DNA from: Glandiceps talaboti
Lineage: Eukaryota; Hemichordata; Enteropneusta; Spengelidae
Length of the DNA: 64,000 nucleotides
Assembly: GCF_964340395.1 (NCBI RefSeq)
Contig: NC_135554.1
Span: forward strand, 11,276,475 to 11,340,474
Direction of reading: 5' to 3'
The position numbers and the translations under genes are program-made. This document shows, piece after piece, positions 9,435 to 63,897 of the stretch (within the stretch, counting starts at the first letter, position 1; each line of letters opens with the position of its first letter). The notes beneath the pieces are model-generated. The model had not been told where the DNA came from. It made no database searches and saw only the letters and a list, made by a program, of their open reading frames with translations.

Positions 9435-35586
<26,152 letters not shown>

Positions 35587-44228: not shown

Positions 44229-47200
44229 TTAGAAGTATTTCTGTAAAGATTCTCCAATAGTCTTCTCAATTTCTTCAATCACTTGACGACATTGTTTCTC
44301 AACCTCCTCAGATTCATCTACAAAACAAAATATCAGATTAAATTTAAAAAAAAAAAGATTGACTCAAACTTTATGTAAATTTAAAGTATTAAATGGGTGG
44401 AACGAGACTTGAAATGATCTCTACAAACATCACGATACATATACTTTATGCTATTTATAAAGTTCCAGGAGTTGTCACATCATTTTCCAATGCTTTCCTT
44501 GTTGGTCAACAATGAGTTTATTTTGAAAACTGCAAAGGGATCTTGGGTGTGTCAACAATGTCATATGCCAGGAGTACAACTTCGTACAGCATTTTACTAG
44601 CAATCTGCCATTTCACTTTTACTCACAGAACTTTCTTACAGCCAGTTTTTTTAAGAAACGACATTCAACCTCATTCAGTGTTTACACTATCTTGGTTTCA
44701 GGGTGATTATATCCAAAATAAACAAGGCATTGCTATCACCCACTTGTTTAGTTTACGTCTATCTTAGTTTTCTGATATCACATTTTCCGCAGTAGTATTA
44801 CGCTTACCTTCTAATAACTCAGCTAGGAATGGAATAGTCTCAGGAACAAGAATCTGGAAATCTTCATTCAGTCTGTTATGGATTTCTTGTAAGACTGACA
44901 GTGCTGCAAAACGTACCTGGATATAACACAAAAAGACATATTACTAGCATGAACCTGTCTATCTTGCGTGGGCGAGGCACCAAACACTTGCCTAATAATG
45001 TCATCTTTTTTCATCGATGAAAACAGATTCAATCCAAATTCGTACAATAGAGTGTTATTTTATCAGTGGCACGGTCATTCTTCTGTGTTGGACCTACTTT
45101 TTCTAAATCTCTGTTCACACGACATTTTAATACTAAACGGAACAGGACCCTTTACATAATTTTTTTAAATTATTGTCACGGTGTATATATTTCACCATTT
45201 AATGATATCCGGCAATATGAAGTCTTATGACCTAAGCAGTCTATATATTTTTGATTGATAACGACAACGTCAGACAGTACTTGGTAATTGTGTGGTTTCC
45301 ATGACGTATCGTCACCGGCAGCAATGGTTAATTGTCCAATAGACTGAAATACTTTATGGGTCAAAATGACAAAAAAAAAGTTTTCTAGTGAGCTACAACA
45401 TACTAAAAAATAGGTAGGTTAGGATATCATTGGTGTATCCATAGACAGTCCATCAACGAGGGTCTATGGTGCATTAAATGAAATAGATGTGCATCAGTGA
45501 CTCTTTGTTTTCACTTAGAACACTGAGCCAAACACTTCAGAAGAAGAACAAACCGTGTGAAAGTTCAAAGTGTTCCCCCTAGTCTTTCACACTGTACAAA
45601 ATCACATGTACATCTATCTCTCTACCAAAACTAGCTGAACTCCTTGACAACTGACCTTTGCAGAATCACTTCTAGTTTTCAATAAAACTTGGTAATTGAG
45701 TGGTTTCCATGACGTATCATCACCAACAGCAATGGTTAATTGTCCAATACAAGGTGTTAGATGGGATGTGATTCTCTCTTGATAAATATCGGCACCACCT
45801 TGGAAATTATCAATCTGGTGTAAAAAAAAAACAAACAAACAGAAAACTCAGTTTTGTTATTTTCAGTAAAATTTTCATACATGAAAAAAAATTTCTAAAC
45901 TTGGAGTAAACTTTACAAAAATTTCACTGTATTCAAAATCACAACAGACAACTTAAATTCTTAACTATTAGTGACAAGTGAATTCTGTGCGGCCTACTTT
46001 TATAAACACTCTTCTAGATGGTTTTATAACATTGTTTTCATACAGCCTGCTGTCATTGGCTTCTGTCACCTCATATAGGCTAGTGACACATAGTGACCTC
46101 AATTTGCATATAGCAAGGTACTAGTCATGTTCTATTCTCCCTAGGGCACTAGTCATGTAGCATGGAAGTATTTTCATTGATTTGCTTTGACTATGGAATG
46201 AATATGTGCCTGAAAATATGATGTGTTAGATAAAATGCTTATTGACTTTATTTGGGTGCTAATAAATATCATATTACCCCCTCCTGTTATTATGTAGCAA
46301 CCATTTCCCTTGGCTGAACAGCTGCTGCATTAAACTGCTCTCAGGGTAATAGACATCTATTAGTGCCCTCATAGCCAGGTAATAAAAGTGTATAAACATT
46401 TGGAATGAGTAGACTACTGAAACAGACCAATGAAATTCTGAGACCTACACTCGATGTTTTTATTATCAGCACAGTTTTGATATCCCTACCTGGTCAACAA
46501 GTGGCTGCATAAGACAGTCAAACCTGTCCTTGTTCATAAAACCCTCAGTGTCATACAGGAAACATTTATGTAGACAATCAATGATGTATTGTAACAGTAA
46601 GGAAGACTTAGCATCACTAGACTCATCGCTTCCAAAGAAGGCTACATCTAGATATAAACAAGAGAAATGAAAATGTGATCATTCATTAGAAGTGAATATT
46701 TAACAGCCTGCTTGATTACAACCATATACAACAATGAGACAAAGCCAACCAAATTCTTGTGTTGGGGTGATTATTATCTTTTGCACAATGATAACTAGCC
46801 TGAAAAGATTATGTTACAACATTAAAAAAGTACAAACACAAAAATACTTTAATTAAAGCAAATCTAATCTCTCTTCTGTCGTAATCGTAGACTGTGTACA
46901 TTCTATTCTACCAGCAAAATCTTTGGAATTGTGCTACTTTAGTTTCAATGGTCATTCACATATTTCACTTTCCTTCAAGATATCACAGTACTCTGTCATT
47001 GAACATACAAAACAAGTGTAGATATTACACAATGTCTCCCTCACACCCCTATCACCATATTTCTTTTGTTTTTACTTGGTCTGGGCAGTCCAACTTCTCC
47101 AACATAAATAGCAAGGGCCATTTCTTACAGAAACCCACAAACTTACCTGTATTGGATAGGTTATTATCATTTAGCAAGCTGGCTGAGTTTTTAACAAGGT

Positions 47201-50200
47201 GTCCAGCAAACAGAGTAAACAATCCTTTCAGTTTGTCAGCTATACAGTTAGACAGTCGGTAAAATGTGACCAGTCTGTCTTTTGGTGCATCACTCCTGGT
47301 GGCCCAATCATATAACTGTAACAGAACATTATACAGTGAGATACATAGCAGACTTGTAGATTTATAAAAAACAACAAAAATACTCAGCTGGAGTAAAGAA
47401 GGTTTTCTGAAAGTGCTAGCTACATTGTAAGTGCCAACATACCCCCTTTCAGCATAGTTCTAATATTAATGGTTCATACGAATGGCCTCCCACAAATAAA
47501 TAAATAAATAAATAAATAAATAAATGAATGAATGTATAAATGTAAAAATAATTAAATAAAAAAAGAAAAAAAAGAAAGAAAACAATTCAGAAGCTTATCT
47601 CCCTTGAGCAATCAACTATAACTTGAAGGGAATAATACAAGATACAACAATTCCTAGTTTTTCCAAATACACACATTGCATCATTCTACAGTGCCAAATG
47701 AATAAATCTTACAAGAGGAACTGCAGGTTGACGCTGGGCTAGCAATCAGAAAGGGATTCTTGAGCTATATACAGGTGTAAGCTACACTCACCTGTGGTTA
47801 TAGGTATGCTTTCTATAGACTTGTAGACAACTACTACATTGTACATAATGTGATTAATATGAATTTCAATGCATTATGTGCCACGTGTGTGTGTGTCAGG
47901 TTGGTCAGCCACTAGAGGGAGTTACGTATGAAACAGGTTTCCTCTATGTGAACTTTACAAAAATCATACGACTACCACGTACCTTGAAAAAGACGGGTTT
48001 GAATGACGCTTCTGATGACTTCATTACGAGAGATAGAAACGCTTCTATGACATCACCTTCAATACTGGATATAACGTCCAATGGAGACTGTACCAAAAAA
48101 GACATACTGCTAAGATTCAAGAACATACAAAACAAACTACAGGAGAACTGAAGTTGCCTTGGTGTTTCACTCATGGTACATGATGGTTTTAATACAAAGA
48201 CACACACAATTCAACTCTAGACTAACAATAACAGAGACACAACACACACAGCAGGATCCTTTCCCTAATCACATTGAAAAAAGATCAAGCATTGCAGCTA
48301 TACTTTTACAGTGCTGTAGAAACAGGCTTCTGCAACATGTTAACTTGTGTGCTTCTACATCATGTATCACGAGTGAAACAATAAGGTATCTTCAGTTCTG
48401 TTGTATTCATCACACATATGATACATGTAAACAAATTACAGCAACCATTTTGTTTGTTTTGTAAAAGTTACTTTAAACGGACACACTTCTACCAAATTAC
48501 TCCCCAAAAAGTGACCATGTACTTGAAATTCAAAGTCACTCTTTGCAAGTTTTATTTTCCCTAATTCTATTTCCATCAACAACAGTATAAAGTACATCAG
48601 TGTATGGAATATTTGACAACAGAATACAAATATCTCACTATTTGTACGGATATCCCAATTAATCTGAAATTTGACAAGTACTGTCAAGACGAAATGTCTG
48701 ACATAAAACTTTACCTGTGTATGCGTAGCTCTGTAATCTAACGCTGTAAGGAACAATGTTAGTATAGTACTCTGATGAGATGTTAGGTCTTCTTTCTGCA
48801 TTGTTGAGATGGATTCTCCTAATACCTTCATAAGCGGTCCAATACATACCTGGATATATTCATATAAAACATAGCAATGAAATAATGGATAAAATTTTGA
48901 AAAACTACAGGTCAGCATAAATTAGCTGGGTGCGATTGCTATGACTAGATAGATACACTATTTGCAGAAATATTGTGAACTACCAGTGCAAACTAAAACT
49001 ATATATTTACTGCATTGCTATCAACTTCATAACACTGACTGACTACTTACTGCACTGCTATCAACTTCATAACACTGGGTGACTACTTACTGCATTGCTA
49101 TCAACTACACAACACTGAGTGACTACTTACTACATTGCTATCAACTACATAACACTGGGTGACTACTTACTGCATTGCTATCAACTACATAACACTGGGT
49201 GACTACTTACTGCATTGCTATCAACCACATAACACTGGGTGACTACTTACTGCATTGCTATCAACTACATAACACTGGGTGACTACTTACTGCATTGCTA
49301 TCAACTACATCATGATAACACTGGGTGACTACTTACTGCATCACTATCAACTACATCGTGATAACACTGGGTGACTACTTACTGCATTGCTATCAACTAC
49401 ATAACACTGGGTGACTACTTACTGCATTGCTATCAACTACATCATGATAACACTGGGTGACTACTTACTGCATTGCTATCAACTACATCATGATAACACT
49501 GGGTGACTACTTACTGCATTGCTATCAACCACATAACACTGGGTGACTACTTACTGCATTGCTATCAACAACACAACACTGGGTGACTTCTTACTGCATT
49601 GCTATCAACCACATAACACTGGGTGACTACTTACTGCATTGCTATCAACTACATCATGATAACACTGGGTGACTACTTACTGCATTGCTATCAACCACAT
49701 AACACTGGGTGACTACTTACTGCATTGCTATCAACAACACAACACTGGGTGACTACTTACTGCATTGCTATCAACAACACAACACTGGGTGACTTCTTAC
49801 TGCATTGCTATCAACCACATAACACTGACTGACTACTTACTGCACTGCTATCAACTTCATAACACTGAGTGACTACTTACTGCATTGCTATCAACCACAC
49901 AACACTGGGTGACTACTTACTGCATTGCTATCAACCACATAACACTGGGTGACTACTTACTGCATTGCTATCAACCACATAACACTAGGTGATTACTTAC
50001 TGCATTGCTATCAACTACACAACACTGGGTGACTACTTACTGCATTGCTATCAACTACATCATGATAACACTGGGTGACTACTTACTGCATTGCTATCAA
50101 CTACACAACACTGGGTGACTACTTACTGCATTGCTATCAACCACACAACACTGGGTGACTACTTACTGCATTGCTATCAACCACACAACACTGGGTGACT

Positions 50201-53200
50201 ACTTACTGCATTGCTATCAACAACACAACACTGGGTGACTTCTTACTGCATTGCTATCAACCACATCGTGATAACACTGGGTGACTACTTACTGCATTGC
50301 TATCAACTACATAACACTGGGTGACTACTTACTGCATTGCTATCAACCACATAACACTGGGTGACTACTTACTGCATCGCTATCAACTACATCGTGATAA
50401 CACTGGGTGACTACTTACTGCATTGCTATCAACTACATCGTGATAACACTGGGTGACTACTTACTGCATCGCTATCAACTACATCGTGATAACACTGGGT
50501 GACTACTTACTGCATTGCTATCAACTACATCATGATAACACTGGGTGACTACTTACTGCATTGCTATCAACTACATCATGATAACACTGGGTGACTACTT
50601 ACTACATTGCTATCAACTACACAACACTGGGTGACTACTTACTGCATTGCTATCAACTACATCATGATAACACTGGGTAACTACTTACTGCATTGCTATC
50701 AACCACATCATGATAACACTTGGTGACTACTTACTGCATCACTATCAACTACATCGTGATAACACTGGGTGACTACTTACTGCATTGCTATCAACTACAT
50801 CGTGATAACACTGGGCGACTACTTACTGCATTGCTATCAACTACATCGTGATAACACTGGGTGACTACTTACTGCATTGCTATCAACTACATCGTGATAA
50901 CACTGGGTGACTACTTACTGCATTGCTATCAACTACATCGTGATAACACTGGGTGACTACTTACTGCATTGCTATCAACTACATCATGATAACACTGGGT
51001 GACTACTTACTGCATTGCTATCAACCACATAACACTGGGTGACTACTTACTGCATTGCTATCAACAACACAACACTGGGTGACTTCTTACTGCATTGCTA
51101 TCAACCACATAACACTGGGTGACTACTTACTGCATTGCTATCAACTACATCATGATAACACTGGGTGACTACTTACTGCATTGCTATCAACCACATAACA
51201 CTGGGTGACTACTTACTGCATTGCTATCAACAACACAACACTGGGTGACTACTTACTGCATTGCTATCAACAACACAACACTGGGTGACTTCTTACTGCA
51301 TTGCTATCAACCACATAACACTGACTGACTACTTACTGCACTGCTATCAACTTCATAACACTGAGTGACTACTTACTGCATTGCTATCAACCACACAACA
51401 CTGGGTGACTACTTACTGCATTGCTATCAACCACATAACACTGGGTGACTACTTACTGCATTGCTATCAACCACATAACACTAGGTGATTACTTACTGCA
51501 TTGCTATCAACTACACAACACTGGGTGACTACTTACTGCATTGCTATCAACTACATCATGATAACACTGGGTGACTACTTACTGCATTGCTATCAACTAC
51601 ACAACACTGGGTGACTACTTACTGCATTGCTATCAACCACACAACACTGGGTGACTACTTACTGCATTGCTATCAACCACACAACACTGGGTGACTACTT
51701 ACTGCATTGCTATCAACAACACAACACTGGGTGACTTCTTACTGCATTGCTATCAACCACATCGTGATAACACTGGGTGACTACTTACTGCATTGCTATC
51801 AACTACATAACACTGGGTGACTACTTACTGCATTGCTATCAACCACATAACACTGGGTGACTACTTACTGCATCGCTATCAACTACATCGTGATAACACT
51901 GGGTGACTACTTACTGCATTGCTATCAACTACATCGTGATAACACTGGGTGACTACTTACTGCATCGCTATCAACTACATCGTGATAACACTGGGTGACT
52001 ACTTACTGCATTGCTATCAACTACATCATGATAACACTGGGTGACTACTTACTGCATTGCTATCAACTACATCATGATAACACTGGGTGACTACTTACTA
52101 CATTGCTATCAACTACACAACACTGGGTGACTACTTACTGCATTGCTATCAACTACATCATGATAACACTGGGTAACTACTTACTGCATTGCTATCAACC
52201 ACATCATGATAACACTTGGTGACTACTTACTGCATCACTATCAACTACATCGTGATAACACTGGGTGACTACTTACTGCATTGCTATCAACTACATCGTG
52301 ATAACACTGGGCGACTACTTACTGCATTGCTATCAACTACATCGTGATAACACTGGGTGACTACTTACTGCATTGCTATCAACTACATCGTGATAACACT
52401 GGGTGACTACTTACTGCATTGCTATCAACTACATCGTGATAACACTGGGTGACTACTTACTGCATTGCTATCAACTACATCGTGATAACACTGGGTGACT
52501 ACTTACTGCATTGCTATCAACTACATCATGATAACACTGGGTGACTACTTACTGCATTGCTATCAACTACATCGTGATAACACTGGGTGACTACTTACTG
52601 CATTGCTATCAACTACATCATGATAACACTGGGTGACTACTTACTGCATTGCTATCAACCACATCATGATAACACTGGGTAACTACTTACTGCATCACTA
52701 TCAACCACATCGTGATAACACTGGGTGACTACTTACTGCATTGCTATCAACCACACAACACTGGGTGACTACTTACTGCATTGCTATCAACCACATCGTG
52801 ATAACACTGGGTGACTACTTACTGCATTGCTATCAACTACATCATGATAACACTGGGTGACTACTTACTGCATTGCTATCAACCACATAACACTGGGTGA
52901 CTACTTACTGCATTGCTATCAACCACATAACACTGGGTGACTACTTACTGCATTGCTATCAACCACACAACACTTGGTGACTACTTACTGCATTGCTATC
53001 AACCACATCATGATAACACTGGGTGACTACTTACTGCATTGCTATCAACCACACAACACTGGGTGACTACTTACTGCATTGCTATCAACCACACAACACT
53101 GGGTGACTACTTACTGCATTGCTATCAACCACACAACACTGGGTAACTACTTACTGCATTGCTATCAACTACATCATGATAACACTGGGTGACTACTTAC

Positions 53201-55741
53201 TGCATTGCTATCAACCACACAACACTGGGTGACTACTTACTGCATTGCTATCAACCACACAACACTGGGTGACTACTTACTGCATTGCTATCAACCACAT
53301 AACACTGGGTGACTACTTACTGCATTGCTATCAACTACATCGTGATAACACTGGGTGACTACTTACTGCATTGCTATCAACTACATCATGATAACACTGG
53401 GTAACTACTTACTGCATCACTATCAACTACATAACACTGGGTGACTACTTACTGCATTGCTATCAACCACATCGTGATAACACTGGGTGACTACTTACTG
53501 CATTGCTATCAACCACACAACACTGGGTGACTATTTACTGCATTGCTATCAACTACATAACACTGGGTGACTACTTACTGCATTGCTATCAACTCCATCG
53601 TGATAACACTGGGTGACTACTTACTGCATTGCTATCAACCACACAACACTGGGTGACTATTTACTGCATTGCTATCAACTACATAACACTGGGTGACTAC
53701 TTACTGCATTGCTATCAACTACATCATGATAACACTGGGTGACTACTTACTGCATTGCTATCAACCACATAACACTGGGTGACTACTTACTGCATTGCTA
53801 TCAACCACATAACACTGGGTGACTACTTACTGCATTGCTATCAACTACATCATGATAACACTGGGTAACTACTTACTGCATCACTATCAACTACATAACA
53901 CTGGGTGACTACTTACTGCATTGCTATCAACCACATCATGATAACACTGGGTGACTACTTACTGCATTGCTATCAACCACATAACACTGGGTGACTACTT
54001 ACTGCATTGCTATCAACCACATAACACTGGGTGACTACTTACTGCATTGCTATCAACTACATCGTGATAACACTGGGTAACTACTTACTGCATTGCTATC
54101 AACCACACAACACTGGGTGACTATTTACTGCATTGCTATCAACTACATCATGATAACACTGGGTGACTACTTACTGCATTGCTATCAACTACATCGTGAT
54201 AACACTGGGTGACTATTTACTGCATTGCTATCAACCACATCGTGATAACACTGGGTGACTACTTACTGCATTGCTATCAACCACATCGTGATAACACTTG
54301 GTGACTACTTACTGCATCGCTATCAACTACATCGTGATAACACTTGGTGACTACTTACTGCATTGCTATCAACTACATCGTGATAACACTGGGTGACTAC
54401 TTACTGCATCGCTATCAACCACATCATGATAACACTGGGTGACTACTTACTGCATTGCTATAAACTACATCGTGATAACACTGGGCGACTACTTACTGCA
54501 TCGCTATCAACTACATCATGATAACACTGGGTGACTACTTACTGCATTGCTATCAACTACATCGTGATAACACTTGGTGACTACTTACTGCATTGCTATC
54601 AACTACATCGTGATAACACTGGGTGACTACTTACTGCATCGCTATCAACTACATCGTGATAACACTGGGTGACTACTTACTGCACGCTATCAACCACATC
54701 GTGATAACACTGGGTGACTACTTACTGCATTGCTATCAACCACACAACACTGGGTGACTACTTACTGCATTGCTATCAACCACATAACACTGGGTGACTA
54801 TTTACTGCATTGCTATCAACTACATCGTGATAACACTGGGTGACTACTTACTGCATCACTATCAACTACATCGTGATAACACTGGGTAACTACTTACTGT
54901 ATCACTATCAACTACATCATGATAACACTGGGTGACTACTTACAGCATTGCTATCAACCACATCGTGATAACACTGGGTAACTACTTACTGCATTGCTAT
55001 CAACTACATCATGATAACACTGGGTAACTACTTACTGCATCGCTATCAACTACATCATGATAACACTGGGTGACTACTTACTGCATCACTATCAACTACA
55101 TCATGATAACACTGGGTAACTGCAGGTAGTAAAATCCTGGTGGCCACAGTATTGGATAGTTTGTCACAGATTGCCTTTAATCTTATATTCAACTGAGACT
55201 TGTCATCATTGTCAATGGTTGAAAGTGCTGAAACCTACACAGTGGAAAGAAATGAACACAGGTTAGTGGAAAGAAATGAACACAGGTTAGTGGAAAGAAA
55301 TGAACATAGGTTAGTGTAGAACAAAACAGTTGACACAAAAGCTATGATCATAGACATTTTGTAGTATAACATGTATGACTAAATAGTCTTTGAATATCAA
55401 AACTATTATTATTTGCTTTCATTTATCAACATTCATGGATATATGACTTGGTAATGATGAAAACAGTACATGTAATGGTGACTATTATACATATATGTAT
55501 TAACTAGCGTGTGTGTGTATGTGTGTATGTATGTATGTATGTATGTATGTATGTATGTATGTATGTATGTATGTATGTATGTATGTATGTATGTATGAAT
55601 CTATGCATGCATGTATGTATGTATGTATGTATGTATGTATGTATGTATATGTATGTATGTACCGGTACGTATGTATGTATGTATGTATGTATGTATGTAT
55701 GTATGTATGTATGTATGAATCTATGCATGCATGCTTGCCCA

Positions 55742-55772
<31 letters not shown>

Positions 55773-58700
55773 ATGTGTGCATGTGTGTGCGTGCATGCAT
55801 GCATGTGTGACTGTCGGCTGACTTACCCTCTTCAGTATATCCAGCAAGTAAGGACTTAGAAAGTGTGGTAGGTTATCCACTACCTTGTGTAGTGCTGTTA
55901 CAGCACTTAGTTGGAACAGATCTGAACTGTAAAGCAAATACATTTATATATATATCTGATTATCACGGCATACAGTAAGTGATCACTTCCAGATTTGAGT
56001 GACTGTCAATATTTATTCATGCACTGATTCTTGAAAACATACAAAATTTATTACAAATATACTTGTCAATCTAAATGCGCAATTTGTCATGAAATTTTTT
56101 TGGACAAAGACAAAACAGTTAAATGTAACTGTGAATCCTCAAATTTAATGAAGTCTTTAACACAAGCAATCTGTTATCCACAAACAAGAATAATACATGA
56201 TTGTGTACTTTTCACGTGACCGACACCACAATTTTCTGCGCAATGATTTTCAAAAGTGTGTATGTTTTAACTGTACTGTGTCTGAATTATCCTTGCAACA
56301 TCCAATGATTATTAATGTAACACTGTGCATACCTTGCTGTAGATTCATTGTTATCCAGTACTTCTAATAATGGTGGCATGAACTTAGATAAATATGGAAT
56401 GTTATGAGCTTTCAGATTGGTACATAGTTCAGCTAAGCAGAGCAGAGCACTGGCAGCAACCTGAAAACAAAAAACACAATGTTAACATATTTTGAAACTG
56501 TTCACTACCATAATGTATGTAAACATATGACTGTTACATCTTAGTCCTGAATTTTGTTTATTATATGAATATCTTTTTCTCCTCACAAGAATATTTTTCT
56601 CTTTACAGGCTTGCAAGACTTTCCAGGATATGACAATGTGTGGTGATGACGCCATGATCATGGAGAAAAATCACTCTTTTTTTTCTTCTTCTATGCAGTA
56701 ATGAAGTGGCTACCCTTGCATCAATTTGTGCAAGAATGAATATGAAACTAGTGAAAATTTTATTTTACAATGTCAAAATCTTTGGATATAAGTCATTTTT
56801 TCTTTTCTTTTTTCAAAGTCTTGTAGTGTGGTGTATTTCTTCCTTGCTTATAAAGGAATTAAAAACATTTAAATAAATAAAATAAAAAGTTCAAAACTCT
56901 ACTGACCTGAGGATTACTGTTTTCACTTGAGAAAATCCTTGTTACGACTTCAATAACTGGAGTAAAGGACTTCGGATGTTCCAATCCAAATATCTTACAC
57001 AGAAGTTTCAAACTGTACAGCGCTGTTTGTTTGTTGATGTTCAATTCCTCCATGTCTCCCCTAATGGCTTGTGTTGCCTTGGCAACAGACACTAGTTCAT
57101 CAACCATGTTCAGCAGGGACGACACCTGAATAGTGGAATGATGTGTAGAGGTCAAGAGAACAAACAAAATACATCACATTACTGTCAGGATAGGTGGCTT
57201 GGGTTAAAGGTCAACCGTTTGGAAAATGGTAACCCCCTAGTTTCCTAATAAAATGAGTATTTTGAAAATCTTGAGTCTAACCACCATGGTGTTCATATAT
57301 GTACTTTACAGTGCCTAAGTACAATGTATGCAAAATATAACTTGCAGTCACGTTGACAGTAGAAATGATGTTGGCTTGGCGTTTCACTCATGGGACATGT
57401 TTTTGACACAACGATAGACAAATTTCAAACTCTAGACTACATTTGTACCAATAACAGAGACACAACACACACAGAATCACATTGTAACGTGATAAGCATT
57501 GTTATCTGTTTAACAGTGCAGCAGAAACACCAAGGCATCCTCATTTGTACTGTAAAACATATAAACTTTACAGAATAAAGTGCTATGGTTCATACAGTGG
57601 TAAACTAATTCATCCATTCAAGGATTTTACAATTTAAAATTTTAACAATTTTGGCATCTAAAACATTGAAAAAAATTACTAATTTTTTCAAATGAAATTT
57701 TTCCATCCAAACACTTAAATTTAATTCAACTATAATTTTTCAGTCAAGACAAAGACATAATTATAAAATATGAGCTACTGTCCAACAATTTCATCAACAC
57801 ATACCTGCTGTTCTGTGAAAGGTTCTCTGTGCTGAGCTAGTTTATTATTCAGGAGTTCCATAGCTTTACGACGGACTGAAGCAGCACTGTGATGCATCAA
57901 CCCAGACACAACGGTTATGAAGGCACTGGTTGGTAGCAGGGCATTCACCTAGAGTGGAAAATAAAGAAAAAACCAATTATTTCACCACACTATATAAATT
58001 CTACATGTAGATAAATTCTGCAGTGTTCGTGTAATTACATGACATTCTCAAAATACTTTTCTGCGTTCAAAATATGAGTGGCCTAAGGGGCCTTGTCACT
58101 ACAGGTTGAAGACAAGTAGTAAGAAAACTTTTATTGTCACAAGTATTTTCCAAATGAATAAAATAAAACATGGGGGGGGGGGGGGAGATGTTGACGTAAT
58201 CGTACACTTACCATATCTAGTGTATCATTGGTCTTATGTAGCAATGTATTCTACACTTACCATATCTAGTGTATCAATGGCCTTATGTAGCAATATATTC
58301 TACACTTACCTTATCTAGTATATCATAGGCTTTATGTAGCAATGCCCTCCAAAACTTGACAGAAGGCTTTTCATGATTGGCTTCTAATGATCTAGCTGTG
58401 ATGGCCATATACCGTAAGTTTTCCTCTAAAAGACTAACAAGAGATATATACAAGATTAACATCAACGATGATTATAGATCTTCACAGGTTTGCCACATGT
58501 ACAAATAGGCTAAACAAAACCGTTACTCTTCTACATTTTCTACACAGTACAACAAATTTTATCATACACATCACTAATTTCTCTTTTCCACCACTAGAGG
58601 GCATACTTTACTGCACGCTCTAAAGCTGACGGACATCTTCCCTGATCTATCAACTAATAGTATGTCTGGAATATTTCATGTGTGATTTTGGTTGATATTG

Positions 58701-61692
58701 AACACTTTTCAATGCTAGAAATTAGAGTTAATTCCAATCAAAATACAGATTTAGATAAACTGACAAGAAGTATCCTACCTTTGATAAAGTACTTTCATCT
58801 CATTCATTGCATCTTCTGACAACTCAGCAATCTACAAACAGAGAGCAATGAGACATTCATTTTATTTCTTTTCTTTTTTCATTTTTTTCATTTACAAATT
58901 GTAGAGTCAGCCCAAATCAGTATTCATCTAAAAACAGTCAGAACTAGAACGACGGCCTCTATATCTTTGTAGTAAGACCTCAGACCTGTGCTCAGAAGGC
59001 TACCGTACAAAAACTGAAGGTTTACTGTGCACCTTTGTTCACAGTCAATATGGAGTTCAGTCCTTGGTTATGTGACCTACGGTTGTTTCGAAAAGTTAGC
59101 ACAACTGCTCGAAGGTCTAGCAGCTAGGCTATGAAGACTCCTCGGTATTTCATTTACTGTACACTTTACAAACTTATGACAAAAAAAAAAAGAGAAAAAA
59201 AAAAAAAAAAAAAAAAAAAAATTATGACAAACACTTGTACATTAACCAGTCAAATTAAGACAGCGCTCTTAGCTTTAAACAAACCATCTTTGCTTCACAC
59301 CCAAATTATGTATTTAGATTTTACTAATGAATGGTCGTAAATATGTTACCTTTCACTTACTAACAGTAAAGATGACTGAAGTGTGCAGTCGAAAATTCCA
59401 ATTTCAAAGCTTTGTTCAGAATTAATCTGATACTACGATATACCATTGATCACAGATGAATTTTCAGTTGAATTTTTTTTTGTCTATTTGATGCACATTT
59501 ACTTATCAATGAATTCAGATGATTAATGGGTTGCTTTTCTCTCTGGACTTGCAGATATTTATCTAGCATGACAGTAATTAAGATGTGCTTTCATAACGCT
59601 CCACACTTATCTGAATGTTACAAAATTTGATGCTACCTTACCTGACTGACAAATGTTGTACTTGCCAAGAGTTGTGGCAAGAAACTGACAACTACATATT
59701 TAAATTGACGTAATTGTTTAGATGTGTTTCTTTCAACATTAAATAATGGTTCTGTTTTCTTCTTCTCAGCTGACTTGGGAGTTCTGCCAGGTCTTAACAT
59801 TCCAGGCAGTGCAGGTTCTATAAAAAAACAAACCCCAGAGATACATTTTTTGTAATATTTCATTTCTTTGAACCAAAAATACCATAATTTTTTTGTAAAC
59901 TGAGTATTGCTAGTTTGTTGTTCATAATGTTTGGCATTTTTGTATGTTACAAAGCAGACAAATCTATTTCTCCCTGTGAGAGTATTAACATATATTGCAT
60001 TGCACTGTACTGCATTGCTTCGTGTTGTGTTGTGTTGTATTGTATTGTATTGTATTGTATTGTATTGTATGGTATGGTATTGCATTGTGCTGTACTGTAT
60101 TGCATGTATTGAATTGTATTGTATTGTATAACATACTGGGGAATAATATTTAAATATGCCAATTGCTTGTCACCCCTCTTTTGTCTAACATAGATCACTC
60201 TATCAAAGGACGAAACCAAAGTATACCTATACATGGGGTTGGGAAGCCATGGATGGAGGGGGTGATGTCAACTTGCTTTTGTTTTTTTTCTTCAGGTAGA
60301 GAACACAGGTATTGTAGAATCTGAATCACAACTTTTGACTTGTACATCAGGTTTACAGGTACATGGAGGTGTGGGTGGGGGAGGGGGAGGGGGGGGGGTA
60401 AATAGTGGAGGTGTCAACTTACTGTCATCCTTGTCTTCAGGTAGAGAATTAAGATACTGTAGTATCTGTATCAAACTCTTAACTTGTACACCAGGAGTAC
60501 AGTAATGACAAACTGATAAACATAACTCTATGTCTTTGCCTGCACCAATAATTGCCTGTCATCAAAATGTAAAATCACAACAAACAGTTATTTTCACTTA
60601 ATAGTAAAAAATTCGGTTCAAATCAAGTTCTTTAAAAAAAAAAAATAGTTGATGTTTACATGCAGCAATAAAATTGTTATTATAATTATCACAGTTTGCT
60701 AAAATAGAGTACAGCGATACTAAGCAAGGTTACCATGGCAACCATGATGTTTTATATAATTGTCTAATAAACAAACACACTGTATTACGATAGATATACT
60801 ATGTTGACAAAATAAATCACCAAATTTTTTCCCTGAATCCATTTTATGACGAGTACATAGATATCACTATCAAAAAACAATAATTTTTGTGTGGTGTTTG
60901 TGAGAGAACTAACCTTGTTTTCGGAATCTGCCGAGTTGTCAGTTTTTTTACAGACATGACTGGCCAACAGAAGTATAACCACCGTCCATAGGAATCTATC
61001 GCTACCTAGGGTGTCTAGTAACTGTGTTAATACAGGTAACTGACGATGAGCCGGAATGTGGGGTAATGCATCCACAAACACCCTGGTTACCATGACAACC
61101 ACATCCTCAATGCCGCCTCCAAGTTTTTCTCGCATTGCATCTTCCTCACTTGCCTGAAATGTGAACGAGATAATTAGGATGAGGTATAAAATATGTTATA
61201 CATGTGAGCAGTTGGAAATGGACATGGAATTTATCATTAAACAAATTTGCATATATACATTTGCATATTTGCATATATGCCTGGGATGTTTAGAACCTTC
61301 TGGAATGAGCAGACTCTTTACGCCATTCCCTGCTACCATCTAATTATGTCCATTCTCTCTTTCAGAACGCGTTTTGGGGTTCTCTACGGTGCGTGTGATT
61401 TTAACATCTTTCTATGTAATACTTTACTGTTTGTTAAAGCTAGTTGTGTGTCGTTCCTTTTCAGTTACACAGATGTAAGCCAGACTTTGTATACCGACTT
61501 ATATCTTCCCTTTATCCTTGTTAAAGAATATTAATTCGAAATGTCGGATTGCATTTGTTGATTGGGACTGTTTTACTCGTTACTTATGCACTTCTTTTGC
61601 ATATACATGTAGTTTGTACATACGTGTCATATATCCAAATTTTCACTGGTCTAGTTACCATTATCTGGGTTATATTAAAATGGGCTGTTATC

Positions 61693-61723
<31 letters not shown>

Positions 61724-63897
61724 ACTAGGGACTCGCGAAATGAGTTGAAGTGATACAGCTAGTATTTTGACAATGTTTGACTCTTACCTTAATCAATACA
61801 GGTATTATAGTTTGTACTATCTTGTTACTATGGTAACAATGTTTTATTCTTACCTTGATCAATACTGGTATAATAGTCTGTACTATCTTGTTGATAACTT
61901 GAAAACTGTAGGAATCATCTTGTCTTAGTAAGTTAGCACCCATGAAGGTAAAGATGGACATTATATTGTGTAACACGTGTTCCTGTGAAAAATACAGTTT
62001 TTCTCATTATATACTTATAACAGAAATAAATACAAATACATGAAACAAATTTATATAATGTATTTGTGATTGTAGGAGGTAGGTAAATACAACTCTTAAC
62101 ACTGTATTTGTCAATCTCATTTACAGCATTCATATCAAGTGTAGAAGTATAGGGTTTTTTTTGGCCATATGGATGAGGATTGAGTTTTTATTTGGGATTT
62201 TTAATTTATAAAACAATTTTATAATGGCTTCATACTTGAAAAAATCAATGTGAGACAACAATTGCCAAGTCTGTGTTTGTAACTAAATAAATTGCAAAAA
62301 CTTAAAAAATATGTAAAAAAAAGTTTTGTTTTTGTACGTGCAATAACAAACATTTTATACATTTATTAGATATTTAAACTATTTATTCAGAAGAACTACA
62401 CACCATTGTAATTTGTAAAAGTGAAAGTTTAGGTGAAGCTCTCTTGTCTACACCTGTGGGTTTGTTACATACATGTGGATAGAAGTTTTAGTTTCATTTT
62501 CGTAAAATTTCAACTGTGTGAAGGTTTTCAAGAGTTCAAATTTCAAAGTTGAGTTTTATCAATACAAATCTCTAATGAGAGGATAATGAAATATATATAA
62601 ATTCATTACACTATTTTGCAGCATGCACACTACTATAATGACAATAGACATGAGGTATAATTTCTTGAAGTTCAAACAAAATTAATGGTCAGCAGCCAAC
62701 TGAACTGTTTCTTTCATGCAGTTACTGTTTATATCATTAACTAAATAAAGTGCCCACACTGTGATGTTTGTGTGTTATCTTTATTGTGTCTATCTCAACA
62801 TGAAATCTTATGATCAGGCTCACTGATCTTGATAGTTTCGTTTAGAAGCTCGGACAAGCTTCTTCAAAAAAAGAACTAAGATTTGTACTGTAATTTACTT
62901 ACAGGGAAGAGACCAGCAGCACAGGCTAGTAACAGCATAGCATGGTGATGTGTTTGTGGATTATCCGATACACGTATACACTGGATAATTAAATCTACGT
63001 TAAACTGTTCAACACTTAGGATATCTGTTGAGAAGAGGAGACATTATAAATATTTTTATATGGCATATATCATTATCAACACTATGTTCAAACACAAACT
63101 GGTTATGACATACACAAAATGTACACATAGTGCTTCGATGTAGTCTTTAACACATACATGAGGGGCTTGAAATTAACAGTACTAGTAGTCCCGTGTCCAA
63201 AGACAACCAATTCTTGTCTTGTCTAGACGTTTGGGCTTTTTTTCGATACAATAAGCGAACGAAATTCACAGTGACGGCTTTCCTGAACTCGAAACAATCA
63301 AAGGTTTCAGTGGTTCCATCCTCGATAGCGAAGAACAGCTGAGGTCTAGCAGATAGACTAGGGGCTACCACAATTTGCAGCCCACTCAGGCTACAATGTA
63401 CCATGACAATTTGATTATGCAATGATTTAAAGGATGGAAGATTTACAGACATGAAAGTATTTTAATAACAAACATATTTCCAACAGAGGAACCGTTTTCA
63501 GTTCAGGTGCATGGGACTATTGGTCATCATCCTTGGGCTACCACTTTCTGAAATTTTCCTTGAATACATAAAAAATATGTTTTAGGATCGGCAGTGAACA
63601 ACTAGCTGGGATTGGGTACTGGGAAATAAATGTTGAAGTGGTTGTACATGAGACTACACTGGGACATACTTTTTGGAAGTTTACTCTATTGTGACAAAAA
63701 TTTTCTACTTGACAAAAATTATGTACAACTATAGATTTTGTATGAAAAGAAATGAATGCATTAATTGGAACAACATACGTTTTGGCAGTGGCTTATTGTC
63801 TGGTGATAGTCTCTCACATAAACCATGAATACATCCCAGGATTAACTGTTTTACATACTCTATGGAACCTTGCTCAGATATCTCTACATCCAGACAT
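44229..63897 (-). CDS. HEATR1: HEATR1 / UTP10 homologue, C-terminal 20 exons (5' part beyond the right edge)
   Basis: HEATR1 is a giant HEAT-repeat scaffold of the nucleolar t-UTP/U3 snoRNP (small-subunit processome), needed for rRNA transcription and early pre-rRNA cleavage. Exons in gene order: 63779-63897, 62903-63024, 61854-61982, 60914-61153, 60423-60555, 59642-59817, 58779-58831, 58310-58433, 57805-57948, 56907-57125, 56333-56460, 55827-55926, 55082-55234, 48715-48849, 47983-48087, 47147-47315, 46490-46647, 45656-45814, 44808-44916, 44229-44317. They join in phase to 920 residues plus stop, against about 2,100 for the full vertebrate protein. Family-typical stretches are FTFMGANLLR, VVDNLPHFLSPYL, EDLTSHQS, LKGLFTLFAGHLVK, DDTSWKPLNYQVLLKTR, LVPETIPFLAELLE and the final TIGESLQKYF. 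The BP28CT domain lies near the start of this part. Every junction is GT-AG. Five exons carry downstream partial duplications (see findings). Confidence 0.96.
45276..45342 (-). pseudogene. Partial duplicate of HEATR1 exon 45656-45814
   Basis: About 66 bases encode IGQLTIAAGDDTSWKPHNYQ, against IGQLTIAVGDDTSWKPLNYQ in the true exon. There is no acceptor before it and the copy breaks off before the donor. It lies 411 bases downstream of the exon in the next intron and is not expected to be spliced in. Confidence 0.85.
47497..47545. repeat. (AAAT)n microsatellite
   Basis: About nine AAAT units with variants, in a HEATR1 intron. Confidence 0.9.
48137..48404. mobile_element. MITE family copy 2 (HEATR1 intron)
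   Basis: It begins ctacaggagaactgaagttg followed by ccttggtgtttcactcatg. The end carries the complement (gagtgaaacaataaggtatc, then ttcagttctgttgta). Longest of the three copies. Confidence 0.75.
48999..55130 (-). repeat. Tandem array built from a HEATR1 exon end and its 5' splice site
   Basis: About 140 head-to-tail units of 46 or 40 bases fill nearly the whole intron between exons 55082-55234 and 48715-48849. On the coding strand the full unit is the last 36 bases of the upstream exon (ending gttgatagtgatgca) plus the first 10 bases of the intron (gtaagtagtc). The 40-base form lacks six bases around catgat. Units differ mainly by transitions (atg/acg, gta/gtg/gtt, agt/agc). The first unit is the true exon end itself, so the array arose by amplification of this exon-intron junction. 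A G residue before the donor is missing in every unit (gca|gtaagt). Confidence 0.97.
49500..52495. repeat. Higher-order duplication of about 1,496 bases inside the array
   Basis: Marker variants recur at a constant offset: gctatcaacaacacaacact at 49561 and 51057; the rare ccacataacactgactgact unit at 49801 and 51297; the gggtaactac unit with cttggtgact at about 50675 and 52171. The block therefore duplicated as one piece, recently. Confidence 0.85.
55242..55314. repeat. 24-base tandem repeat, three copies
   Basis: gtggaaagaaatgaacacag plus gtta repeated three times, just on the intron side of the acceptor of exon 55082-55234. Confidence 0.95.
55505..55800. repeat. (ATGT)n microsatellite
   Basis: About 300 bases of ATGT with gtgtgt edges and two atgaatctatgcatgc interruptions, 26 bases short of the HEATR1 exon at 55827. 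Tyr-Val-Cys-Met and Ile-His-Thr-Tyr frames are artefacts. Confidence 0.97.
57356..57553. mobile_element. MITE family copy 3 (HEATR1 intron)
   Basis: It begins acagtagaaatgatgttggc and ttggcgtttcactcatg and ends gaaacaccaaggc then tcatttgtactgt. It is shortened internally compared with copy 2. Confidence 0.72.
58203..58343 (-). repeat. Triple tandem copy of HEATR1 exon end plus donor
   Basis: The last 34 bases of exon 58310-58433 with 15 bases of intron (gtaagtgtagaatat) form a 49-base unit present three times. The upstream copy is the real exon end and two degenerate copies follow in the intron, each with an intact gtaagt. Reading past the true donor meets a stop within about ten codons. Confidence 0.93.
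59189..59221. repeat. Poly(A) tract
   Basis: About 30 adenines with one G; possibly a retroposon tail, but no element is recognisable upstream. Confidence 0.9.
60005..60128. repeat. (TATTG)n microsatellite
   Basis: Pentameric tract of about 24 units with tgctg, ggtat and similar variants. Confidence 0.95.
60265..60370 (-). pseudogene. Partial duplicate of HEATR1 exon 60423-60555, with a GC donor
   Basis: The end of the exon is repeated about 145 bases downstream. It reads KPDVQVKS and then, after a one-base insertion, VIQILQYLCSLPEE, matching CTPGVQVKSLIQILQYLNSL in the exon. The donor gtaagttg has become gcaagttg. The frameshift makes use as an exon unlikely. Confidence 0.85.
61686..61723. 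repeat. Poly(C) tract
   Basis: About 37 uninterrupted C residues on the plus strand. Confidence 0.95.
61788..61892 (-). repeat. Tandem duplicate of HEATR1 exon end plus donor, in frame
   Basis: A 66-base unit (39 exon bases and 27 intron bases) is present twice at the 3' end of exon 61854-61982. Both copies end with a gtaag donor. The sequence between the two donors is open, so use of the second donor would add 22 residues (KHCYHSNKIVQTIIPVLIK at its end), repeating the NKIVQTIIPVLIK of the exon. Confidence 0.93.
61984..62900. other. HEATR1 intron without recognised element
   Basis: AT-rich intron. It holds one arm of the fold-back repeat seen at 33866 (near 62133) and otherwise nothing I can name. 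Confidence 0.45.
63025..63778. other. HEATR1 intron with a long antisense-free frame and a repeat fragment
   Basis: A 101-codon frame on the minus strand (63147-63452) has no flanking splice logic fitting HEATR1 and no recognised product. At 63575-63635 the core aggatcggcagtgaa is a fragment of the TIR element family. Confidence 0.4.

What the first reader, a model, noticed from the sequence alone, without database searches (positions are those of the whole stretch)
48999..55130. An intron made almost entirely of about 140 copies of its own 5' splice site
In HEATR1 the exon 55082-55234 ends at gca|gtaagt, and the same 36 exon bases plus 10 intron bases are repeated head to tail through a 6.2 kb intron. 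Minisatellites in introns are common; one whose unit spans the exon-intron border of the host gene, and so multiplies a functional donor site, is something I have not seen described. Every unit offers a gtaagt donor in sense orientation, so splice choice, U1 binding or premature polyadenylation control could be affected.
Basis: partly seen in the sequence, partly recalled or inferred. Interest (0 to 1): 0.92.

Follow-up and report, generated by a model that had tools for sequence, protein, structure and literature searches.

The report
Giant repeat of a splice donor site
In an animal HEATR1 gene the end of one exon and the start of its intron are copied about 140 times in a row, so the true splice site is followed by over a hundred near-identical decoys; human genes have small versions of this, so the kind is known and mainly the size is new.

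Summary
On the minus strand, HEATR1 exon 55234-55082 ends gca|gtaagt, and the segment spanning that border (37 exon + 9 intron bases) is repeated head to tail to 49010: 142 donors, 141 units (71 of 46 bp, 69 of 40 bp, one of 45 bp), about 97% of a 6,232-bp intron. 130 of 142 donors are exact GTAAGT. The gene is HEATR1 (E=4.8e-268 to human). The first donor gives a protein collinear with human; each of the other 141 runs into the same stop codon. All 70 reported genome hits of the unit (up to 3 mismatches, 590 Mb) lie in the array. The claim that this is undescribed does not hold: human F7 intron 7 has 37-bp repeats whose first unit holds the true donor, with only the most upstream donor used ('oriented scanning'); human IFI6 is another case. 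Best reading: a neutral minisatellite born by tandem duplication of the border and tolerated because the first donor wins. New are the scale, and that three more donors of this gene lie in small border-crossing duplications (suggestive, post hoc). Donor use in RNA could not be tested.

The parts
55082..55234 (-). HEATR1 exon (153 nt, phase 0) whose 3' tail is the exonic part of the repeat unit
   Evidence: open frame, ungapped match to human HEATR1 (7mq8) across its 3' end
55073..55121 (-). Source segment: AGT (55119-55121), 37 exon bases (55082-55118) and 9 intron bases GTAAGTAGT (55073-55081), i.e. one 46-bp unit flanked by the AGT micro-repeat
   Evidence: sequence (own reading); TRF boundary 55121
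55076..55081 (-). First (most upstream) donor GTAAGT, the only one of 142 that gives an intact reading frame into the next exon
49010..55081 (-). Array of 141 units (71 x 46, 69 x 40, 1 x 45 bp) with 142 donors, 130 of them GTAAGT
49469..52460 (-). Two head-to-tail identical 35-unit blocks of 1,496 bp (52460-50965 and 50964-49469): recent long-range duplication inside the array, or an assembly duplication
48850..49009 (-). Single-copy remainder of the intron with the acceptor (tatatccag|GTATG); probable ancestral intron body of about 160 bp (inference)
48715..48849 (-). Next HEATR1 exon
55241..55316 (-). 24-bp x 3.2 tandem repeat of branch-point/pyrimidine-tract-like sequence just before the acceptor of the same exon (resemblance by eye)
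61760..61892 (-). Second border-crossing duplication: 66-bp unit, 2 copies, spans donor of exon ending 61854; both donors gtaaga; donor 2 would add 22 aa in frame
58203..58344 (-). Third border-crossing duplication: 49-bp unit, 2.9 copies, spans donor of exon ending 58310; three gtaagtgta donors; donors 2 and 3 run into a stop
60261..60502 (-). Fourth border-crossing duplication: copies 146 bp apart, 2 copies (76.5%), spans donor of exon ending 60423; the copy has gcaagt instead of gtaagt

Best explanation
A neutral, border-spanning minisatellite. A short-homology (AGT...AGT) tandem duplication copied the last 37 bases of a HEATR1 exon and the first 9 bases of a roughly 160-bp intron; unequal exchange or slippage then expanded it to 142 donors, most recently by a 1,496-bp block. 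Splicing uses the first donor, which is the first to be transcribed and the nearest to the exon's own acceptor, and ignores the rest, as reported for human F7 intron 7. The downstream copies are then simply removed with the intron. Shown: anatomy, gene identity, single locus, stop codon for all later donors. Inferred: order of events, use of the first donor, neutrality.
For: Array structure. HEATR1 frame and ungapped alignment across the first donor. 141 of 141 later donors give the same stop after 59 residues of the exon's frame, so an essential gene (essentiality recalled) must use the first. The donor is not the quietest part of the unit: its nine columns rank 8th of 46 windows in 55 non-redundant 46-bp units. 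The first donor is no stronger than the decoys (7 of 11 consensus matches; 131 of 142 score 7), so position must decide. Unit found only here (70 of 70 reported hits). F7 precedent for most-upstream use (PMC6627357 passages).
Against: No RNA and no second genome were available, so donor use and copy-number variation are untested. The donor columns are quieter than the rest of the unit on average (minor-base share 0.6% against 3.4% in 46-bp units, 2.0% against 3.9% in 40-bp units), which a selectionist could use, although seven other windows are ranked quieter. In human IFI6 downstream repeat units are used as donors (PMC4526556 passages). The last donor reads GTAAATATATAG rather than GTAAGTAGT, so the ancestral intron head needs one extra small change. 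Three other donors in the same gene are also tandemly duplicated; random placement gives three or more in about 0.26% of trials (post hoc).
Confidence: 0.8

Rival explanations
1. Leaky donor choice with a regulatory effect: some transcripts use later donors, gain the stop codon and are degraded, so that array length tunes HEATR1 output.
For: All 141 later donors give the same early stop; 131 of 142 donors match the consensus equally well; IFI6 uses downstream repeat donors (PMC4526556 passages).
Against: In F7 only the most upstream of the repeated donors is used in the normal state (PMC6627357 passages). I found no feature of the sequence that marks the later donors as used.
Confidence: 0.12
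2. The donor array is kept by selection as a U1-binding platform (decoy, telescripting or intron-length device).
For: 130 GTAAGT in 6,232 bases against 8 in the remaining 13,568 bases of the gene stretch; donor columns less variable than the average of the other columns.
Against: Seven of 46 nine-column windows rank quieter than the donor window. There is no AATAAA or ATTAAA in the intron to protect against. A copied unit multiplies whatever it contains.
Confidence: 0.03
3. The array is real but its length is an assembly product, for example the exact 1,496-bp block counted twice.
For: A 35-unit block is repeated with every unit identical.
Against: 71 of 141 units lie outside the two blocks, and the array holds 43 distinct unit sequences; recent block duplication is ordinary in minisatellites (recalled).
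Confidence: 0.15
4. Intron birth by tandem duplication (Rogers/Hellsten type), the array having created the intron.
For: A border segment is tandemly copied, as in the potato RdRp case (PMC4974935 passages).
Against: No AGGT anywhere in the array; the acceptor lies in single-copy sequence outside it.
Confidence: 0.03

Closest known systems
Human coagulation factor VII (F7) intron 7 37-bp minisatellite
   Same: Repeat whose first unit contains the true donor, followed by highly homologous repeats; only the most upstream donor used (PMC6627357 passages; original paper Borensztajn 2006 not held)
   Different: Copy number recalled as about 5-8 (from no call), against 142 donors here; different gene, animal and unit
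Human IFI6 (6-16/G1P3) minisatellite (Turri 1995: title and citing passages only)
   Same: Minisatellite supplies several donor sites to one transcript
   Different: There two downstream repeat units are used and yield extra mRNAs; here any later donor gives a stop
Tandem-duplication intron gain (Rogers model; ATP2A1; potato RdRp; fission yeast 24-bp repeats; all from PMC4974935 passages)
   Same: Tandem copying of a segment in an exon or at an exon-intron border
   Different: Here an existing intron appears to have been enlarged; no new acceptor was made

Membership tests
F7-type border-spanning minisatellite | Repeat unit spans the exon-intron border of the host gene | tested here: met
F7-type border-spanning minisatellite | First unit holds the authentic donor | tested here: met
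   Judged from protein only: ungapped alignment with human HEATR1 across that junction; later donors give a stop, 141 of 141
F7-type border-spanning minisatellite | Downstream donors near-identical to the true one | tested here: met
   130 of 142 GTAAGT; 125 of 142 are GCAGTAAGT from -3 to +6
F7-type border-spanning minisatellite | Only the most upstream donor is used | not testable with these tools
   no RNA data
F7-type border-spanning minisatellite | Copy number varies between individuals | not testable with these tools
   one assembly only; exact 1,496-bp block duplication hints at instability
IFI6-type donor minisatellite | Downstream repeat donors are used | not testable with these tools
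   no RNA data; predicted products carry a stop
AGGT tandem-duplication intron gain | Duplicated segment supplies both new splice sites (AGGT) | tested here: not met
   0 AGGT in the array; acceptor outside the array

The most novel reading that the evidence does not exclude
In this genome, or in this gene, tandem duplication strikes 5' splice borders more often than chance: 4 of the 18 donors that I placed in the window's part of HEATR1 lie in border-crossing tandem duplications (2, 2, 3 and 142 copies), while none of the repeats examined there crosses an acceptor (acceptor places approximate). A donor-linked duplication process, or tolerance for spare donors, would then be at work, and the 142-donor array is its extreme.
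Probability: 0.12. Interest if true: 0.6.

Novelty: new member of a known kind. Interest (0 to 1): 0.38.

Why it matters
The true donor here is one of 142 competitors, 131 of them with the same consensus score, so it is a natural, extreme test outside mammals of the rule that the most upstream of identical donors wins. If HEATR1 mRNA is normal, strength and number of decoys barely matter and position (first made, nearest the exon) decides. The three small duplications in the same gene look like what early stages of such an array would be.

Tried and rejected
Recursive splicing through the units: rejected, since gca|gtaagt cannot rebuild a donor after an AG cut and there is no AGGT in the array. 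RNA hairpin function: three units and the exon-border copy fold little better than shuffles (z -0.5 to -1.4, four sequences), and a 198-nt stretch has z -2.0 with 7 of 200 shuffles as good; not pursued. Enrichment of GTAAGT in tandem duplications elsewhere: not seen in a small sample (304 kb, of which 12 kb N: L001-L021, L030-L034 and window 1-44000, so the N-terminal half of HEATR1 is inside it; 53 duplication loci kept, GTAAGT in register in 1, mean of 90 permuted hexamers 1.1; GTAAGT or GTGAGT in 3, backwards control in 2). That sample is not annotated for genes. Two loci longer than 3,000 bases (L020 whole, L021 4383-10000) were dropped before the counts (counted). In the clustering test I dropped the 46-bp array itself (one variant of the run kept it), microsatellites and homopolymers (among them 47494, 55512, 59181, 59993, 61694). 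The N-terminal half of HEATR1 (L030, L031) holds four tandem-repeat loci; by eye none crosses a donor, which weakens the clustering argument. Protein search with a 96-aa piece found nothing, as expected, because length limits exclude full-length proteins. Literature searches without a usable hit: one paper, on ABO, start of abstract only; no paper.

Full report
WHAT IS THERE. On the minus strand the exon 55234-55082 ends gca|gtaagt and is followed by a tandem array (TRF 49007-55121, period 46, 142 copies, score 8297). Cutting at the donors gives 142 donors from 55081 to 49010 and 141 units: 71 of 46 bp, 69 of 40 bp, one of 45 bp. The 40-bp type lacks 6 bases in the middle (consensus units compared). 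130 of 142 donors are GTAAGT, 6 GTAAAT, 6 GTAAGA. The intron is 6,232 bp, so the array is about 97% of it; what remains is about 160 single-copy bases with an ordinary acceptor.

GENE. Two exons on either side of the intron match human HEATR1 (7mq8, E=2.3e-18). A chain of exon translations from 63.9 to 44.2 kb matches human HEATR1 residues 1237-2144 (E=4.8e-268) and Utp10 chains (best E=2.4e-54). The alignment runs without a gap across the first donor, so the splice at 55081 fits the conserved protein. The genome is 590 Mb in 47 contigs; the window is C7:11276475-11340474.

ORIGIN. The exon reads gcAGT|TACCC...; the units read gtAGT|(T/C)ACCC.... The unit therefore starts and ends at an AGT, which fits a short-homology tandem duplication of 37 exon plus 9 intron bases (own reading). 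After the last donor the sequence is GTAAATATATAGT|TTTAG, again with AGT at the joint; the ancestral intron head may have been a few bases longer (inference). A unit-length pattern with up to 3 mismatches gave 70 hits in the genome, all listed inside this array, so no outside source was found. Units close to the exon look slightly more exon-like (distances; no test made). A block of 35 units (1,496 bp) is repeated exactly: recent growth, or an assembly duplication.

CONSEQUENCES. Splicing from donor 1 keeps the frame. Splicing from any of the other 141 gives the same stop, after 59 residues of the frame that starts with the exon. The true donor is no stronger than the decoys: 7 of 11 consensus matches, the score of 131 of 142; the 17 window donors of the gene that I scored range from 6 to 10. 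So the cell must choose by position. Within the unit the donor columns are quieter than the other columns on average (minor-base share 0.6% against 3.4% in 46-bp units, 2.0% against 3.9% in 40-bp units, second copy of the duplicated block left out) but are not the quietest stretch: their window ranks 8th of 46. I read that as no clear sign of selection on the copies. There is no AATAAA or ATTAAA in the intron and no GTAAGT or GTGAGT on its other strand.

PRECEDENTS. [quoted passage not shown] it cites Borensztajn 2006, which was not held (anything further about it is recalled). [quoted passage not shown] paper not held). PMC4974935 (passages) covers intron gain by tandem duplication. The kind is therefore known. 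I found no described case of this size in eight searches, but most subscription papers are not in the library.

OTHER BORDERS OF THE SAME GENE. Self-comparison of the window shows three further tandem duplications across donors of this gene: 61760-61892 (66 bp, 85%), 58203-58344 (49 bp, 91%, three copies), 60261-60502 (146 bp apart, 76.5%). In the first two the human alignment again fits the upstream donor; in the third the alignment has insertions there and does not decide. The other repeats of this stretch are a copy of exon interior (45279), a 24-bp repeat (55241), an 18-bp repeat (62281) and microsatellites or homopolymers. None of the repeats examined crosses an acceptor (acceptor places approximate). 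Random placement of the six non-microsatellite duplications outside the array puts three or more across donors in 0.26% of trials. That number is post hoc, ignores that an exonic copy decays more slowly, and leaves out the N-terminal half, where none of four repeat loci crosses a donor by eye. In 304 kb of other sequence GTAAGT is not enriched in tandem duplications (1 of 53 loci). A genome-wide count could not be obtained.

VERDICT. Observation confirmed, explanation ordinary in kind and extreme in size: a border-spanning minisatellite that, by the features testable here, belongs with the F7 type; most likely neutral, with the first donor used.

Noticed in passing
11013-13365: Peptides repeated in two copies (for example at 11199 and 12034) with the look of a decayed, partly duplicated mobile element, possibly Maverick-like (name recalled, not tested).
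   Followed up: no
45279-45341: A 63-bp copy (94%) of the inside of the HEATR1 exon 45814-45656 lies about 400 bp downstream in the next intron.
   Followed up: partly
61760-61892: Using the second donor here would insert 22 amino acids in frame into HEATR1, a possible alternative isoform.
   Followed up: partly
69139-70133 in window-extended coordinates (L030): Another HEATR1 intron stretch carries a 52-bp array about 1 kb long that does not cross a donor by eye; the sampled genome is rich in tandem repeats, 39 loci kept in 21 stretches of 10 kb, two very long ones dropped.
   Followed up: partly
L010 9770-10000, L012 4644-5008: Random-sample tandem repeats with GTGAGT or GTAAGT in register; whether they sit at gene borders is unknown.
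   Followed up: partly
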